The position numbers and the translations under genes are program-made. DNA of 38,153 bases from Clostridiales bacterium (GTDB lineage: Bacteria; Bacillota; Clostridia; UBA1381): NCBI GenBank assembly GCA_029226065.1, contig JAQXXM010000039.1:1-38153 (forward strand), in the 5' to 3' direction. Under the pieces are notes generated by a model. It was not told where the DNA came from. It made no database searches and saw only the letters and a program-made list of their open reading frames with translations. Below are positions 32,253 to 38,145 of the stretch, piece after piece; the stretch's first letter is position 1, and the number at the start of each line of letters is the position of its first letter.

Positions 32253-32735
32253 ATGAAAAAAATTGTATGTATACAATTGGGTATAATATTAATAGGCATG
32301 ATCGTGTTTTTTATTACAAATCCAAGTGTTTATAATAAAAATTATTGGAAAGACATAGGGTTAGGTGAATCACATCTGTATGCAGATGTGATCCGAGAAT
32401 TTGGTGAGCCAACAGAAATTCTACACATAAGTGATGCTGAGAGCGTTGTTAGGTACGATGGTGTTTCGTTTGTTTGGTATAATGCAGACTTAAATGGCAT
32501 TTTCGTTTGTAGCGAAATCACTTCGAGTAAAATATCATTTGGTAAAAAAAACGTCAGTGTTGGTATGAGTAAACAAGAAATCCAAAGAATTTATAATAGA
32601 GGATTTATAAAGCCAATCAAAGATTTATCAAATAATGAATTAGGGTATATTGATGGGACAGATGACACTTGGGTATATTTTAAGTTTAATGATAAAGATG
32701 TTGTTAACAAAATAGTTTTGGCACATGGAGTATGA
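32253..32735 (+). CDS. Small membrane-anchored protein, probable orphan immunity protein
   Basis: A 160-residue protein with one N-terminal hydrophobic helix (about residues 4-22) and an outward soluble domain. Two stretches, GLGESHLYADVIREFGEP (near residue 36) and VGMSKQEIQRIYNRGF (near residue 104), resemble the paired helical units of BamE/SmpA-like small domains (inference from pattern only). Its TGA overlaps the ATG of RHS module 1 (ATGA). Its position, size and anchor match the other three presumed immunity proteins of the array, but no toxin precedes it; the gene to its left is a housekeeping gene on the other strand. AAGGA lies 9 nt before ATG 32253. Function is not shown. Confidence 0.65.
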   Translation: MKKIVCIQLGIILIGMIVFFITNPSVYNKNYWKDIGLGESHLYADVIREFGEPTEILHISDAESVVRYDGVSFVWYNADLNGIFVCSEITSSKISFGKKNVSVGMSKQEIQRIYNRGFIKPIKDLSNNELGYIDGTDDTWVYFKFNDKDVVNKIVLAHGV

Positions 32736-34123
32736 AAACAATAAAAGTAACAACGGGAATGACAATCAGTGTATCTGATACATACAGATATGATCTGAGA
32801 GGCAACAGGACATCAAAGACAGGAATAGGTACAACAACACAATATATATATGACTTAAACAACCGACTGCTGAGTACAACAGAGGAGACAGCTGACACAA
32901 GCAGAAAGACTCGGTATTACTATGATAAAAACGGAAATACCATCTCGAAGGCAACAACGGAAGTCGCACCAAGCACTGGAGATACTCAATACACAATATC
33001 AGATACTGCCAACAGCTATGTAACATTCTATGACTACAACAGGTATAACCGTCTTACAAGTGCAGAAACAGACGGAGTAGTGTCAAGGTATACATATAAC
33101 GCAGACAATCTGAGAGCAACAAAGACCGTAGGAAATATCACAACTGAATATGTGTGGGACGGACAAAACCTTGCAGCAGAGACAAAGCAAGGTACAACCG
33201 AGGCCTATACATACGATATGACGGGTGTGCATACGAAAAAACAGGAAGACGAAGTAACGTCATATCTCAAGGACTATCACGGTAACATGATAGGCACCGC
33301 CGATAATACAGGGAGACTTGACTATGACGCATACGGCAATCAACTTCAAGGCGACGCCCCTGACCCATTCGGCTACTGCGGGGAATATTACGACAGTGAA
33401 ACAGGGTTAATCTATCTGCGTGCGAGATATTATGACCCAACCACAGGCAGATTTATCAATGAAGACCCAATCAAGGACGGTTTGAACTGGTATATGTATT
33501 GCGAGGGGAATCCAGTGATGTTTGTGGATCCAAGTGGATTATATGATCGCAATGCTGCGGTAAATTACGCATTAAAATATTCTGTTTTTAAAAATACTAA
33601 TCCATGGGAACAGACATTTGATGATAAAAAACCACCAGTAAGATTTTCTATGGACTGTACTAACTTTGTTTCATTCTGTTTAAAGGCGGGTGACTTACAT
33701 CAATCAGACGATTGGTATTATAATTGGACATGTGGTGGAGGAAATTATGTATGGGGCAGTTATTCAGCAACATGGACAAATTCAGAAGAACAATTTAAAG
33801 CATTTACAAATTGTACAGGAAAGTTTCCAAACTCCAGCTATGCTAATGGAGTAGCAATATGTATTCATGAATCAAAATGGATTCCAGTTACTATTAAAGA
33901 ATATGGGATACAAAAAGGTGATTTACTGTATTTTTTAAATAATAAAACATTGAAAATGGAACATACAGCGATGATTGTATCAGTTGACAATGGTGTCATA
34001 ATATATGCACAGCATGATATAGACAAAAATGATGGTAATCTAAATGAATATTTAGATAAAAATGGTGATGATCCAAACCAATTTAATTATGTGTTTGTGG
34101 TAAGGATTGATGATGATGCATAA
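32732..34123 (+). CDS. RHS module 1: RHS core tip with Amidase_6-like C-terminal domain
   Basis: A 463-residue protein made of several YD repeats (YRYDLRGNRT, YIYDLNNRLL, YYYDKNGNTI, YDYNRYNRLT), then the RHS-associated core (GYCGEYYDSETGLIYLRARY, about residue 217) ending DPSGLYD near residue 270. The rest is variable: YDRNAAVNYALKY, then catalytic-like C309 in MDCTNFVSFCL and H411 in MEHTAMIVS, a layout of the Amidase_6 (PF12671) NlpC/P60-like fold that cuts peptidoglycan peptides. There is no signal peptide and no large RHS shell, so this is a tip without its barrel. It starts inside the stop of the upstream gene. Probably a toxin cassette rather than a working secreted protein. Confidence 0.85.
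   Translation: MKTIKVTTGMTISVSDTYRYDLRGNRTSKTGIGTTTQYIYDLNNRLLSTTEETADTSRKTRYYYDKNGNTISKATTEVAPSTGDTQYTISDTANSYVTFYDYNRYNRLTSAETDGVVSRYTYNADNLRATKTVGNITTEYVWDGQNLAAETKQGTTEAYTYDMTGVHTKKQEDEVTSYLKDYHGNMIGTADNTGRLDYDAYGNQLQGDAPDPFGYCGEYYDSETGLIYLRARYYDPTTGRFINEDPIKDGLNWYMYCEGNPVMFVDPSGLYDRNAAVNYALKYSVFKNTNPWEQTFDDKKPPVRFSMDCTNFVSFCLKAGDLHQSDDWYYNWTCGGGNYVWGSYSATWTNSEEQFKAFTNCTGKFPNSSYANGVAICIHESKWIPVTIKEYGIQKGDLLYFLNNKTLKMEHTAMIVSVDNGVIIYAQHDIDKNDGNLNEYLDKNGDDPNQFNYVFVVRIDDDA
32948..33415 (+). repeat. RHS repeat copy A (aligned to copy C)
   Basis: This 468-bp segment aligns without gaps to 36569-37036, with about 20 mismatches counted by eye. Positions 33218-33389 also align to 35178-35349. 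Identity ends within the core, just before the variable toxin parts. Confidence 0.88.
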
Positions 34124-34727
34124 TAGTAGTTTTATGAAAAAAATATATTTTATAGCAATTATTATATTTTTAGTAAGTGCATTAGGTGTTATATGCATAG
34201 ATAAATTCTTAGATGGTATATGTCCTGATAATATAAGCAATATAGAATTGACAGTTGAAAAAGTGGATATACGAGATATTAATTCATATGATAATATATT
34301 CCATTTATATGGATGGGATGAAACATTATTAAAACAAGTTAGAAACGATTCTGATCATTATGTGATAGTATCCGTTCATTATCATATAAGGAACAAGTCG
34401 GATACTCTGACAATGAAGGATGTACGATTTATTCCTAAATTTGATAGTGAATTGAACGATAGCTTAAAAATGTATAATGTTGATAATGGAACTTACTATA
34501 CATATATAGAACCTTTGTCGGATAGTGGAATGACACAGGATTTATTATTTAAAATAAAAGATGATAAGAACGAAGTTTTAAATAAATTGAAAAACCAACA
34601 AGTTGACATGACATATTTTACCGGATGTTTATCTTCTAGTCATGGGCGAGGATTATATGGAATAGGAAAGCACCATTATAAGTTTGAAATTGGAGATTTT
34701 ATGCAAGTAGGGCGATATGAGGAGTAA
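34113..34727 (+). CDS. Membrane-anchored protein, presumed immunity partner of module 1
   Basis: About 204 residues, unrecognised. An N-terminal helix (KKIYFIAIIIFLVSALGVI) predicts anchoring with a soluble outer domain, rich in aspartate and tyrosine. It overlaps the end of RHS module 1 and lies right after the amidase-like domain, the usual place for an immunity protein against a wall-acting toxin. Several ATGs crowd the start (34110, 34113, 34116, 34134); AAGGA at 34102-34106 suits 34113 or 34116. Base composition is more AT-rich than the RHS core, as is common for such genes. Confidence 0.65.
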   Translation: MMHNSSFMKKIYFIAIIIFLVSALGVICIDKFLDGICPDNISNIELTVEKVDIRDINSYDNIFHLYGWDETLLKQVRNDSDHYVIVSVHYHIRNKSDTLTMKDVRFIPKFDSELNDSLKMYNVDNGTYYTYIEPLSDSGMTQDLLFKIKDDKNEVLNKLKNQQVDMTYFTGCLSSSHGRGLYGIGKHHYKFEIGDFMQVGRYEE

Positions 34728-34860
34728 ACCGAACGATATTCAAGTAGAAATATGCAACTATGGGCGAACCTTATTTTACAAATTCTACTGGACACAAAAG
34801 ATCGGCGATGCTAAAATGGAGATAAGAAGGAGTAACACCTCAAACTATACGCAAAACTAT

Positions 34861-35166
34861 TATGATACCGTAGGTAACATATACGGTTTTCTCGGAATTT
34901 GTGCCGTCTGACAATGACTCTGTATTAAGTTCACAAAGACCTCTGTATGTAAAATTAAATGTATTTCCGTTACGGTCTGTGTTGTGAGTAATAACCCTGT
35001 TGTTTGCTCATGCGTGTTTGTTTCCGTCTGATTCAATGCATCGGTTGTTGTTGATAGTCGGTTTGCATAATCATACGTGTAATTTGTGACAGCATAGTCG
35101 GCACCTGATTCTGTTACATAATCAAATCCGTTTATTGTTAGCGGTGATGTTAGGCCTGCATATACA
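34861..35166 (-). pseudogene. Inverted, frameshifted RHS fragment
   Basis: Read on the minus strand this encodes RHS-type repeats: DYAVTNYTYDYANRLSTTTD and TTGLLLTT in one frame, then, after a frameshift near TTGLLLTT, DRNGNTFNFTYRGLCELNTE in another. The segment is opposite to all neighbouring RHS modules and lies immediately before module 2. The bases between 34728 and 34860 hold a short frame of no recognisable content. It is a dead scrap left by rearrangement. Confidence 0.75.
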
Positions 35167-35177
35167 CACAATAGGTT

Positions 35178-35349
35178 ATGACAGGCGTGCATACGAAAAA
35201 ACAGGGAGACGAAGCAACGTCATATCTCAAGGACTATCACGGTAACGTCATAGGCACCACCGACAGCACAGGGAGACTTGACTATGACGCATACGGCAAT
35301 CAACTTCAAGGCGATGCTCCTGACCCATTCGGCTACTGCGGGGAATATC
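35178..35349 (+). repeat. RHS repeat copy B
   Basis: 172 bp aligned without gaps to 33218-33389 of copy A. It is nearer in sequence to copy C (GGAGACGAAGCAACG and ACCACCGACAGCACA are shared with C, not A). Confidence 0.85.
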
Positions 35350-36134
35350 AGGATTTGTGCAGTGGACTCATTTACCTACGAAATAGGTACTATGATCCAA
35401 GTATGGGAAGATTTATTACCGAAGATCCAGCAAAGGATGGGACAAACTGGTATGTGTATTGTAATAACAATCCTATAAATTATGTAGATCCGTTGGGATT
35501 AGATTCATTTATTATATATGATAACAATGCTGATAGTGGTGATGGTAAGCATACTATGGCAGATGAGGCTGAAATACGAAAAAAACAATTAGAAAAAACA
35601 TGGGGTACTAATGTACAAGTATTTGGCGTTAGTAGCGCATGGGAATTTAAGGAAGTATGGAATAAGCGAGTAGGATATGATTTGGATGGATATGAAGTAT
35701 CTATAGAAGAGGTAGTTATAGTTGCCCATGGTAGTATCACCGGAGATAAAGATGATGGATCTGCACAAGGCTATTTCTATTTTGAAGATGGAGGTGGTGG
35801 TATATATGCAAAGGATGGGAACTATACTGTTAATGATCTGAATTCGAAACATATGGAATGGTTGACTTTTAGCACATGTAATAGTGGGAATCCTGACGTA
35901 TATAATTTGGCATATGCATTTAAGTTGCGTATGACAATTAATCAATATATAGTTGCATGGGATGGAGGAACGATATTTGATTATTCTACGGGTGAATTAC
36001 TCAGAGGAGGATATAATTCTGGACATTGGGCAAAAGATATTATTGGTCAACATGCTTGGTATAAGTATGTAGATAAAACATGGTATGGAAAACCTAAGAG
36101 AAATAGAATTGGCTATAGGCAAATTAAGGGGTAA
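35178..36134 (+). CDS. RHS module 2: RHS core tip with possible clan CD (caspase-like) C-terminal domain
   Basis: A 318-residue tip. It opens TGVHTKKQGDEATSYLKDYHG, nearly identical to module 1, and has the core GYCGEYQDLCSGLIYLRNRY, ending NPINYVDPLGLDS (about residue 110). The variable part has VVIVAHGS (H184) and LTFSTCNSG (C234), each after a predicted beta strand and about 50 residues apart. A strand-His-Gly then strand-Cys pattern is seen in clan CD cysteine peptidases (caspase, CHAT, C80-like). This is an inference from motif order. ATG 35178 has no ribosome binding site, and the segment before it is the inverted scrap, so the frame is probably silent unless recombined. Confidence 0.75.
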   Translation: MTGVHTKKQGDEATSYLKDYHGNVIGTTDSTGRLDYDAYGNQLQGDAPDPFGYCGEYQDLCSGLIYLRNRYYDPSMGRFITEDPAKDGTNWYVYCNNNPINYVDPLGLDSFIIYDNNADSGDGKHTMADEAEIRKKQLEKTWGTNVQVFGVSSAWEFKEVWNKRVGYDLDGYEVSIEEVVIVAHGSITGDKDDGSAQGYFYFEDGGGGIYAKDGNYTVNDLNSKHMEWLTFSTCNSGNPDVYNLAYAFKLRMTINQYIVAWDGGTIFDYSTGELLRGGYNSGHWAKDIIGQHAWYKYVDKTWYGKPKRNRIGYRQIKG

Positions 36135-36138
36135 TTCA

Positions 36139-36552
36139 ATGAAAAGAATATGTAAATTATTAATTATTATATGTACAATATGTTTCATGGCTATAGTTTT
36201 GTCGAATTGTTTTTCTCACTATGAGAGTTTTAATTATTCAGAAATAAAAGGAATACAATATATTCAGTATTTGGGAGAATATGAAGTCAAAGAATATGTA
36301 GATTATGAAGATATAAAAAACGTATCTCAAAAACTACAGAAATTAAGATTTTATCCATCCAAAAACCAAAAATTGCAAGAATCCCCCACAGCTTCGCTCT
36401 ACATATTATATATGAATGGTTCTAAAAAAATAGTTAAAATTGCAGGAATGATGGCTCTGATTAAAAATGTTACAAGTAATAATGGGACATCTGAGGTAAA
36501 TGAAAGCATTTATTACATAAATCCAATAAGTATTAAAGCAATATTTCAATAA
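36139..36552 (+). CDS. Possible lipoprotein, presumed immunity partner of module 2
   Basis: A 137-residue unrecognised protein. The N-terminus MKRICKLLIIICTICFMAIV is a signal-like helix that leads into LSNC, an imperfect lipobox (N at -1 is unusual), so it is a lipoprotein or an anchored protein. AAGGGG lies 7 nt before ATG 36139. It starts 4 bp after module 2 and fits the immunity position for an extracellular or surface-acting toxin. AT-rich, like the other presumed immunity genes. Confidence 0.6.
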   Translation: MKRICKLLIIICTICFMAIVLSNCFSHYESFNYSEIKGIQYIQYLGEYEVKEYVDYEDIKNVSQKLQKLRFYPSKNQKLQESPTASLYILYMNGSKKIVKIAGMMALIKNVTSNNGTSEVNESIYYINPISIKAIFQ

Positions 36553-36568
36553 TATAAAATTATTATAT

Positions 36569-37036
36569 AAGGCAACAACGGAAGTTGCACCAAGCACTGG
36601 AGATACTCAATACACAATATCAGATACTGCCAACAGCTATGTAACATTCTATGACTACAACAGGTATAACCGTCTTACAAGTGCAGAAACAGACGGAGTA
36701 GTGTCTGAGTATACATATAACGCAGACAATCTGAGAGCAACAAAGACCGTAGGAAATGTCACAACTGAATATGTGTGGGATGGACAAAACCTTGCAGCAG
36801 AGACAAAGCAAGGTACAACTGAGGCCTATACATACGATATGACGGGTGTGCATACGAAAAAACAGGGAGACGAAGCAACGTCATATCTCAAGGACTATCA
36901 CGGTAACGTCATAGGCACCACCGACAGCACAGGCAGACTTGACTATGACGCATACGGCAATCAACTTCAAGGCGATGCTCCTGACCCATTCGGATACTGC
37001 GGGGAGTATTACGACAGTGAAACAGGGTTAATCTAT
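36569..37036 (+). repeat. RHS repeat copy C
   Basis: 468 bp aligned without gaps to copy A (32948-33415). The copy begins abruptly 17 bp after the preceding gene's stop codon, without a start codon, so its left edge looks like a recombination or duplication joint. Confidence 0.88.
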
Positions 37037-37777
37037 TTAAGAAATCGTTATTATGACCCTGTAACTTCACGCATGCTTTCGGAAGATACGCACTGGAATC
37101 CGGGAAATATGATTTATGGTGATAATGGAAACCATGGCACTCCTAATATTGATGCAATTATGCAAAGTAGTAATTTATATGTCTATTGCATGAATGACCC
37201 CATAAATTATACTGATTCTACAGGACATCGTTCTAAAAAAGATGCCGATAAGATTATAAAAAATAATGCACAGAACATAAAAGATGCAGCATCTGAGTTT
37301 GGTGTAAATCCTGCTATATTAGCAGCAACTATCTATGCCGAACAAAGATTAAACGTTAATTGGAAAGATGATTTTGTTGATCCACTTGCTTCAGATGTAT
37401 TAGATGTATCTCTTGGTGTAGGGCAAATTAGAATTTCTACAGCAATGAAATTAGAAGACAAGGGATATATGCCTAAAACTAAATATTATGAATGGCATAC
37501 AAATAATTCTGTGGAAAATCGTAGAGCAGGTGTTGCTATAAATTTGCAAAACGATAAAACCAATATTAGGTATGCAGCTGCATACTTATCATATATTCAG
37601 GATTTGTGGAAGTCGGAATATCCTGAAATTGATGGAAGAACAGCTATTTTAGCTACACTTTATAACATTGGGGAATATGGCTCACATGGACCAAATTCTA
37701 GTCCTAAAAGTAGACCATTTGGAGATTTTGCAAAAGATAATTACTATTATATGCAAGAATTACTTGGATTAAAATAA
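36569..37777 (+). CDS. RHS module 3: 5'-truncated RHS tip with lysozyme-like C-terminal domain
   Basis: An open frame continuous with the RHS core of module 1 but lacking a start: the homology begins mid-repeat at 36569, and the first in-frame GTG (36701) is within the repeat with no ribosome binding site. The core reads GYCGEYYDSETGLIYLRNRY and ends INYTDSTGHRSKK. The variable domain has FGVNPAILAATIYAEQRLN, with a glutamate (codon 37340-37342) where lytic transglycosylases place theirs, then SLGVGQIRISTAMKLED and AAAYLSYIQDLW. This matches a goose-lysozyme/transglycosylase-like fold, expected to cut peptidoglycan glycan strands. Family assignment is inferred. Probably silent until joined to an RHS shell. 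Confidence 0.78.
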   Translation, partial: KATTEVAPSTGDTQYTISDTANSYVTFYDYNRYNRLTSAETDGVVSEYTYNADNLRATKTVGNVTTEYVWDGQNLAAETKQGTTEAYTYDMTGVHTKKQGDEATSYLKDYHGNVIGTTDSTGRLDYDAYGNQLQGDAPDPFGYCGEYYDSETGLIYLRNRYYDPVTSRMLSEDTHWNPGNMIYGDNGNHGTPNIDAIMQSSNLYVYCMNDPINYTDSTGHRSKKDADKIIKNNAQNIKDAASEFGVNPAILAATIYAEQRLNVNWKDDFVDPLASDVLDVSLGVGQIRISTAMKLEDKGYMPKTKYYEWHTNNSVENRRAGVAINLQNDKTNIRYAAAYLSYIQDLWKSEYPEIDGRTAILATLYNIGEYGSHGPNSSPKSRPFGDFAKDNYYYMQELLGLK

Positions 37778-37791
37778 GGGAGGATACTATA

Positions 37792-38145
37792 ATGACAAAG
37801 CATAGAAAAACTATTGTTATTTTATTCCCTATATTGTGTTTTATTGTAATATGGGTGAGTTCATTAGTTAAGTGTGAAATTCTTACAGCATTGTATTATG
37901 ATAATTTTATTACATTTGAAGAAGTAAGTGAAGCTGAAACATTTAAAATTCTTTCATGTGACGATTATTCTGCCAGAATTTATTGTGTAACAACTAATTT
38001 TGAAAGTGGAAGTATTCATGATTTTACAAAGGAAAACAATGAATGGAAATACGACAAATGGGAAGATGAAGGTTGGTCAGCTTCTGGAAATGCTGATAGA
38101 GTGATTTGGCCATATTGGTGGCATGTCGTATATTTTTGGTTCTAA
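37792..38145 (+). CDS. Membrane-anchored protein, presumed immunity partner of module 3
   Basis: A 117-residue unrecognised protein. After THRKT-like basic residues, one helix (IVILFPILCFIVIWVSSLV, about residues 8-26) predicts an anchor; the rest is soluble, ending in a tryptophan-rich WPYWWHVVYFWF. GGGAGG lies 8-9 nt before ATG 37792, so unlike modules 2 and 3 themselves this gene has a good start. It begins 14 bp after the lysozyme-like module and fits the immunity place. The window ends 8 bases after the stop. Confidence 0.65.
   Translation: MTKHRKTIVILFPILCFIVIWVSSLVKCEILTALYYDNFITFEEVSEAETFKILSCDDYSARIYCVTTNFESGSIHDFTKENNEWKYDKWEDEGWSASGNADRVIWPYWWHVVYFWF

What the first reader, a model, noticed from the sequence alone, without database searches (positions are those of the whole stretch)
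32253..38145. Tandem array of three RHS-tip/toxin/anchored-protein cassettes
Three RHS core ends are followed by three unrelated C-terminal domains, each with its own small anchored protein. No large RHS shell, secretion gene or signal peptide is present, and modules 2 and 3 lack usable starts. All three domains look able to act at the cell surface or wall, and the partner proteins all have N-terminal anchors with outer domains. This fits a store of exchangeable toxin/immunity cassettes for a full-length RHS gene in a spore-forming Firmicute, as known for polymorphic toxins in other bacteria.
Basis: partly seen in the sequence, partly recalled or inferred. Interest (0 to 1): 0.78.

Follow-up and report, generated by a model that had tools for sequence, protein, structure and literature searches.

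The report
Orphan RHS toxin–immunity cassette array
A Clostridia genome carries a row of three spare toxin tips, each with its own membrane-anchored protector protein, of the sort that bacteria recombine onto a large secreted RHS weapon; the arrangement is known in other bacteria, but here the toxins all appear to act on the outside of the cell.

Summary
At 32253-38145 lie three RHS core ends (TIGR03696 above cut-off), each followed by a different C-terminal domain (CT) and a small anchored protein. Core DNA is repeated at 91-97%; the CTs are unrelated. imm2 and imm3 have clear ribosome sites; tips 2 and 3 have only internal start codons.

It is an orphan RHS (WapA-type) cassette array. In the five loci tested with a long RHS gene and orphan pieces downstream, the pieces match that gene at 82-97% DNA identity. 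Imm1-3 have relatives beside relatives of their toxins; an imm0 relative follows another RHS tip. Monoglobus pectinilyticus keeps the order CT1-imm1-CT2-imm2, with CT2 in fragments. No full-length shell is in this fragmented assembly, so use of this array as a reserve is unproven.

CT1 is Amidase_6 (papain-like), CT3 Tse3-muramidase-like, CT2 an unclassified His/Cys family. In the sampled loci 33 of 40 proteins after RHS tips have an N-terminal membrane segment, against 29 of 88 controls, suggesting envelope-directed arsenals. Known kind; moderate interest.

The parts
32253..32735 (+). imm0: anchored immunity-like protein (160 aa) with no toxin tip before it
   Evidence: one N-terminal hydrophobic stretch; relatives directly after an RHS tip in L058 (37% id) and in a run of small anchored proteins in L054 (43% id); 6 of 391 class genomes incl. 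own
32732..34123 (+). orphan RHS tip 1: core about 32768-33538 plus CT1 33539-34123 (Amidase_6, papain-like)
   Evidence: TIGR03696 89.5 bits; PF12671 E 4.3e-15; CT1 66% identical to a Monoglobus orphan tip
34134..34727 (+). imm1: anchored protein, partner of CT1
   Evidence: 40% identity over 143 aa to the protein after the CT1 relative in Monoglobus; N-terminal hydrophobic stretch
34860..35170 (-). inverted, frame-changed remnant of an RHS shell (internal YD-repeat part)
   Evidence: tblastn with long RHS proteins, best E 8e-11 (residues 1064-1122 of the 1840-residue frame of L048); the L040 match continues in a second frame
35171..36134 (+). orphan RHS tip 2: core 35171-35501 plus CT2 35502-36134 (His/Cys, protease-like, no Pfam or NCBIfam match)
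   Evidence: TIGR03696 82.8 bits; CT2 in 7 of 391 class genomes incl. own, one of them a 22-residue fragment; invariant H76, C126, N127 in 7-member alignment; no family match
36139..36552 (+). imm2: anchored protein, partner of CT2; clear ribosome site
   Evidence: profile of 4 relatives next to CT2 relatives finds imm2 at E 4.5e-7, 4.9e-5 without the N-terminal 26 residues; best of 500 shuffles 0.059
36569..37777 (+). orphan RHS tip 3: core 36569-37198 plus CT3 37199-37777 (Tse3-muramidase-like)
   Evidence: TIGR03696 59.9 bits; Tse3 chains E 0.0013; PF22115 E 6.8e-5, below its cut-off; CT3 in 7 of 391 class genomes incl. own
37792..38145 (+). imm3: anchored protein, partner of CT3; clear ribosome site
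   Evidence: relatives (34-58% identity) directly after CT3 relatives at the five other places compared; the short matches in G406 and G240 were not looked at

Best explanation
It is an array of orphan RHS (WapA-type) C-terminal cassettes. A full-length, Sec-secreted RHS protein would carry one toxic tip; earlier tips, each with the end of the core and its immunity gene, were displaced into a row. The immunity genes would be expressed and protect the cell from kin that carry those tips. The tips have no export signal and no proper start, so they are silent until homologous recombination in the near-identical core joins one to a full-length shell. The toxins would then act outside the cytoplasm of neighbouring cells: CT1 and CT3 on peptidoglycan, CT2 probably as a surface protease; the anchored immunity proteins neutralise them outside the membrane. 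Shown: anatomy, core repeats, pairing conserved in relatives, long RHS genes with matching orphan pieces in relatives. Inferred: expression, recombination in this strain, toxicity, targets. Confidence that it is an orphan RHS cassette array: about 0.95; that it is a usable reserve as well as an immunity bank: the figure given here.
For: Core repeats and RHS core domains. In the 5 loci tested that hold a long RHS gene and orphan pieces downstream (L039, L040, L041, L059, L102), the pieces match the long gene at 82-97% DNA identity. Long proteins in L039, L040, L041, L045, L052 and L056 begin with a signal-peptide-like segment by eye. Pairing: CT1-imm1 in Monoglobus; CT3-imm3 at six places including the window; CT2-imm2 in L101, L103, L104 and L107 (CT2 broken in L101 and L107); imm0 relative after an RHS tip in L058. 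Same order CT1-imm1-CT2-imm2 in Monoglobus. Mosaics: window cores 69-79% to each other, Monoglobus cores 87%, window to Monoglobus 50-57%, while CT1 is 66-69%. G+C 42.7-44.1% in cores, 25.6-35.2% in CTs and immunities. Ribosome sites on imm2 and imm3, none well placed on tips. Likely active residues kept: C and H of CT1 in both species, YAEQ in CT3 relatives, H and C of CT2; the roles of these residues are recalled. Salmonella precedent (PMC3967940, abstract).
Against: No full-length RHS shell in the assembled genome. The left neighbour is a divergent ATPase gene and the right side is unknown. Eight other loci with a long RHS frame showed no orphan core in the stretch fetched. Toxin decay while immunity remains (CT2 in Monoglobus, the missing toxin of imm0) suggests that the immunities may be what is kept. 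The L105 core is as close to window cores 1 and 2 (73-75%) as they are to core 3 (69-75%). Core copies differ at synonymous and non-synonymous codons (A against C 10 and 7; A against B 5 and 7; B against C 5 and 2), so there is no strong sign of selection on the cores. imm1 has no ribosome site of its own. No expression data; no excess of promoter-like sites (33 found, 34.3 expected).
Confidence: 0.62

Rival explanations
1. Immunity bank: only the anchored immunity proteins matter; they protect against kin carrying those RHS tips, and the tips are passengers on the way out.
For: imm0 has no toxin left; in Monoglobus CT2 is reduced to fragments while its imm2 relative is open; imm0 relatives in L131 and L132 have no RHS tip in the stretch shown; imm2 and imm3 have ribosome sites, the tips do not.
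Against: All three CTs in the window are open with likely active residues kept, and CT1 is open at 66% identity in another order; decaying passengers should have broken more often.
Confidence: 0.25
2. A wreck: remains of one or more dead RHS loci with no present use.
For: No shell found in the assembly; an inverted, frame-changed shell piece; truncated tips in relatives such as L043.
Against: Seven open cassette frames in a row; immunity genes with translation signals; conserved pairs and order across genera.
Confidence: 0.08
3. The tips are translated alone and act inside the producing cell as toxin-antitoxin modules, as reported for a Salmonella RHS element (PMC7043789, start of abstract in a listing).
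For: Tip 1 has an ATG overlapping the stop of imm0 (ATGA), which could allow coupled translation.
Against: The immunity proteins have one N-terminal membrane segment and so probably lie outside, where they could not reach a cytoplasmic toxin; peptidoglycan-directed domains have no substrate in the cytoplasm; tips 2 and 3 start only at internal codons.
Confidence: 0.05

Closest known systems
Orphan rhs modules of Salmonella and other Enterobacteriaceae (Koskiniemi 2014 PMC3967940, abstract; Jackson 2009 PMC2935791, passages)
   Same: Core fragment plus foreign tip plus immunity gene, no start or export signal, strings of dissociated tips, composition differing between core and tip
   Different: Those are in Gram-negative bacteria; here the relatives' shells look Sec-secreted and the immunities are anchored
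Orphan cdiA-CT/cdiI arrays (Poole 2011 PMC3150448, passages)
   Same: Rows of toxin fragments with immunity genes, at least one shown expressed, and a shared boundary sequence
   Different: Different carrier (CdiA, VENN boundary)
WapA of Streptococcus suis (PMC12704120, passages) and Bacillus subtilis (recalled)
   Same: Gram-positive Sec-type RHS with polymorphic tips; an orphan tip with incomplete core is reported in S. suis, and two tips acted only when sent to the E. coli periplasm
   Different: The passages I saw describe one orphan, not a multi-cassette array; I did not compare its toxin sequences with these
Papain-like, caspase-like and muramidase toxins of polymorphic systems (Zhang 2012 PMC3482391, passages); Tse3
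   Same: CT3 resembles Tse3 by sequence; papain-like and caspase-like toxin classes are listed in the survey
   Different: CT2 matches no Pfam or NCBIfam family here; the survey passages name secreted or TM immunity for a subset of L,D-peptidase partners and one lipoprotein immunity as exceptional, whereas in the loci sampled here a membrane segment is the rule

Membership tests
Orphan RHS toxin-immunity cassettes | RHS core end with DPxG-type boundary followed by a variable CT | tested here: met
   TIGR03696 on all three; tips 1 and 2 end in DPSG/DPLG, tip 3 in the variant DSTG
Orphan RHS toxin-immunity cassettes | Immunity gene directly downstream of each CT | tested here: met
   position and conserved pairing; protection itself not tested
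Orphan RHS toxin-immunity cassettes | No own start or export signal on the tip | tested here: met
   tip 1 has an overlapping ATG without a well-spaced ribosome site; no signal predictor run
Orphan RHS toxin-immunity cassettes | Core homologous to a full-length rhs gene of the same genome | tested here: inconclusive
   none in the assembly; seen in the 5 relative loci tested
Orphan RHS toxin-immunity cassettes | Recombination onto the main gene yields an active toxin | not testable with these tools
   needs strains or evolution experiments
WapA-type (Sec-secreted) RHS | Signal peptide on the full-length protein | tested here: inconclusive
   seen by eye in six relatives' loci, not in L048 or L059, no predictor run; no full-length gene in this genome
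Amidase_6 (PF12671), CT1 | Profile match above curated cut-off | tested here: met
   56.6 bits against 23.2
Tse3 muramidase (PF22115), CT3 | Profile match above curated cut-off | tested here: not met
   23.3 bits against 27; Tse3 chains at E 0.0013: may work like it, not filed as a member
Clan CD (caspase-like) peptidases, CT2 | His-Gly and Cys motifs in a caspase-like fold | tested here: inconclusive
   H and C invariant in 7 relatives, motif recalled; no profile match for the window CT2; AF2 model too poor, pLDDT 43.7

The most novel reading that the evidence does not exclude
In this part of the Clostridia the secreted RHS arsenal is specialised to kill from outside: its toxins attack wall and surface and need not cross the target's membrane, so the matching immunity proteins form a layer of membrane-anchored outside shields, collected in arrays and moved with the tips. 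CT2/imm2 would be a new surface-protease toxin family carried by RHS proteins, by a choline-binding-repeat protein with a GPD-like part, and by short effectors.
Probability: 0.4. Interest if true: 0.62.

Novelty: new member of a known kind. Interest (0 to 1): 0.42.

Why it matters
Orphan RHS arrays are best known from Gram-negative bacteria. A clear Clostridia example with conserved toxin-immunity pairs, relatives with the shell attached, and an excess of membrane-anchored partner proteins makes it testable whether Gram-positive RHS weapons mainly act on the envelope, and gives candidate enzyme-inhibitor pairs (CT2/imm2 in particular) for study.

Tried and rejected
Full-length shell in this genome: sought with tip 1, with RHS_repeat and with a 7-member alignment of long RHS relatives; only C39 and the end of C60 were found. 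A further CT3/imm3 copy lies at the start of C107. Synteny: beside the ATPase in the three closest relatives (G011, G001, G012, of 14 relatives with a match) there is no RHS (G012's contig starts 268 bases before that gene). Of 12 relatives with a pheS match, none shows the window's array features in the stretch held, about 0.4-1.5 kb upstream (one, G009, is a 41% match and probably another gene). Both sites therefore look lineage-specific.

AlphaFold2 on CT2 and CT3 without an alignment gave mean pLDDT 43.7 and 48.7, so I ran no fold search. Relatives for an allowed alignment were sought in viral contigs without success; phage records gave none for the L104 version of CT2, and tip 2 matched 13 phage records of which the 8 listed cover mainly the core part. 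CT2 against the L048 CT has no BLASTP support and only 19% identity in the alignment, so L048 is a weak member. imm2 has no convincing PDB relative.

A first count of partners (36 of 43 against 46 of 144) used a looser rule for the tips than for the controls and was replaced (33 of 40 against 29 of 88, same rule for both). The same 34 loci were given in both calls; one search found 52 tip ORFs, and rows without a complete end, with a CT under 80 residues or without a following ORF were dropped; one search also dropped three partners over 400 aa (all with a segment). Nine of the 43 partners have two or more such segments, so 'membrane segment' is not always a single anchor. The measure takes the best of several possible starts in both groups. 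Loci were chosen because they hold RHS tips, several come from one genome, cassettes are paralogous, and other loci held (for example L103, L104, L107, L130-L132) were not given; the p-value of 1.6e-7 should not be read literally.

Not looked at: CT3 matches in G406 and G240, imm0 matches in G321 (fetched, not read) and G357, the CT2 fragment in G439 (fetched, not read).
Full report
What is there. The window is one whole contig (C39) of a 1.84-Mb, 187-contig, 91% complete assembly. A contig of a same-genus genome (G012 C236) has the same length and match as a public record titled uncultured Ruminococcus sp. RUG14178, so the genus is probably a Clostridia genus filed under that name; this is inference. 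At 32253-38145 there are, on the + strand, imm0, tip 1, imm1, tip 2, imm2, tip 3, imm3, and between imm1 and tip 2 an inverted RHS remnant. The contig ends 8 bases after imm3.

More than chance. The three tips carry TIGR03696 cores well above cut-off; their core DNA is repeated at 91-97%. The CTs are unrelated to one another (best BLASTP E 0.78) and the four small proteins each have one hydrophobic stretch, at the N-terminus. Base composition alternates: cores 42.7-44.1% G+C, CTs and immunities 25.6-35.2%, the first 32 kb of the contig 40.7%.

Start signals. imm2 and imm3 have clear ribosome-binding sequences and imm0 a weaker one; imm1 has none and may be coupled to tip 1. The first start codon of tip 3 is an internal GTG, of tip 2 an internal ATG of the core, and tip 1's ATG overlaps the imm0 stop with GGAG too close. 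This matches orphan modules as described for CDI (PMC3150448, passages) and Salmonella rhs (PMC3967940, abstract).

Relatives have the shell. Of 61 genomes (own and 60 relatives) 20 have a core match at E <= 1e-10. Several hold RHS proteins in one open frame of 1673-1964 residues; in L039, L040, L041, L045, L052 and L056 the start looks like a signal peptide by eye, in L048 it does not. In the five loci tested with a long gene and orphan pieces downstream (L039, L040, L041, L059 from Anaerovorax, L102 from Monoglobus, where the long gene is cut by the stretch) blastn finds nine pieces at 82-97% identity to the long gene; two of the nine match parts before the final core. This is a substrate for homologous recombination. 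Eight other loci with a long RHS frame showed no second core in the stretch fetched. In the window's own assembly no shell was found; another RHS end with an in-frame stop lies at the end of C60, and a partial CT3/imm3 copy at the start of C107 beside pheS. Assemblies tend to break in such repeats, and the inverted piece of shell (best E 8e-11 to a long RHS relative) suggests that a shell was once at this place.

Toxin and immunity pairs. CT1 and imm1 are 66% and 40% identical to neighbouring genes in Monoglobus pectinilyticus (record NZ_OY725736.1, called a plasmid but carrying tyrS). Right after them that record has fragments of CT2 and an imm2 relative: the order CT1-imm1-CT2-imm2 is that of the window. 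CT1 was found at E <= 1e-8 in none of the other 390 class genomes searched. CT2 is in 7 of 391 class genomes including own; relatives sit on an RHS tip (L105), on a 1775-residue RHS (L106), on a protein with choline-binding repeats and a sub-threshold GPD match (L103) and on short effectors (L104; L107, split between two frames). The imm2 family is supported by a profile from four relatives (E 4.5e-7; best of 500 shuffles 0.059). After L106 the partner is a different, longer anchored protein, and after L105 first a protein of another kind. CT3 is in 7 of 391 class genomes including own; at the six places compared, including the window, an imm3 relative follows, one of them on a carrier in which I saw no RHS core (L130). 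imm0 is in 6 of 391; a relative follows an RHS tip in L058, one lies in a run of anchored proteins in L054, and those in L131 and L132 have no RHS tip in the stretch shown.

Mosaic structure. Cores resemble each other within a genome (window 69-79%, Monoglobus 87%) more than cores of the same toxin between genomes (48-62% in the CT1 and CT3 comparisons), while these toxins are 53-69% identical between genomes. Against this, the L105 core is 73-75% identical to window cores 1 and 2. Tip 3 and the G073 tip share an end-of-core variant, so the exchange point lies some tens of residues before the CT. Tips have thus moved between cores.

Targets. CT1 is above the Amidase_6 cut-off, with weaker CHAP and NlpC/P60 matches. 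CT3 resembles the Tse3 muramidase, below Pfam's cut-off. CT2 keeps one His and one Cys-Asn in all seven aligned relatives, the arrangement of clan CD peptidases as I recall it; the seventh member is only 19% identical. With the same rule for both groups, 33 of 40 proteins after RHS tips have an N-terminal membrane segment against 29 of 88 after other genes in the same 34 loci, and 20 of 24 in the window's family. Some of these partners have several segments (9 of 43). Non-independence and the choice of loci limit this. If toxins act outside, immunity must be outside too; this is the simplest reading. Zhang 2012 (passages) names secreted or TM immunity for a subset and says that nucleic-acid-targeting toxins prevail overall; S. 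suis WapA tips active in the E. coli periplasm are in PMC12704120 (passages).

Prior art. C-terminal displacement (PMC2935791, passages), orphan CDI arrays (PMC3150448, passages), orphan rhs activation (PMC3967940, abstract), standalone cassettes (PMC3482391, passages) and a S. suis orphan (PMC12704120, passages) are in print. I did not see a description of multi-cassette RHS arrays in Clostridia, or of an anchored-immunity bias there, in the listings or in the passages read; these cover open-licence PMC text only.

Verdict. The kind of system is known.

Noticed in passing
L058 5270-7042 (-), G032 C36: An RHS tip is fused in frame to the N-terminal domain of a UDP-glucose/GDP-mannose dehydrogenase (PF03721 E 3.5e-33): perhaps an orphan tip inserted into another gene, or an assembly join.
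   Followed up: partly
L101 1941-11869, Monoglobus NZ_OY725736.1: A block of conjugative-element genes (VirB4-, VirB6-, VirD4-like) with a recombinase gene directly precedes the RHS cassette array, suggesting a route by which arrays move.
   Followed up: no
L102 and L148, Monoglobus NZ_OY725742.1: A 1952-residue RHS gene (record 73674-79532) and orphan tips are accompanied by repeated 'stalk domain-containing protein' genes, a larger partner type.
   Followed up: no
L127 2-569 (G000 C107): The same genome has a second CT3/imm3 pair (81% identity over the last 59 residues of CT3, imm3 58%) cut by the contig start, next to pheS and pheT-like genes.
   Followed up: yes
L054 12442-15536 (-), G021 C15: A run of small anchored proteins, including an imm0 relative, follows one RHS tip: looks like an immunity island.
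   Followed up: partly
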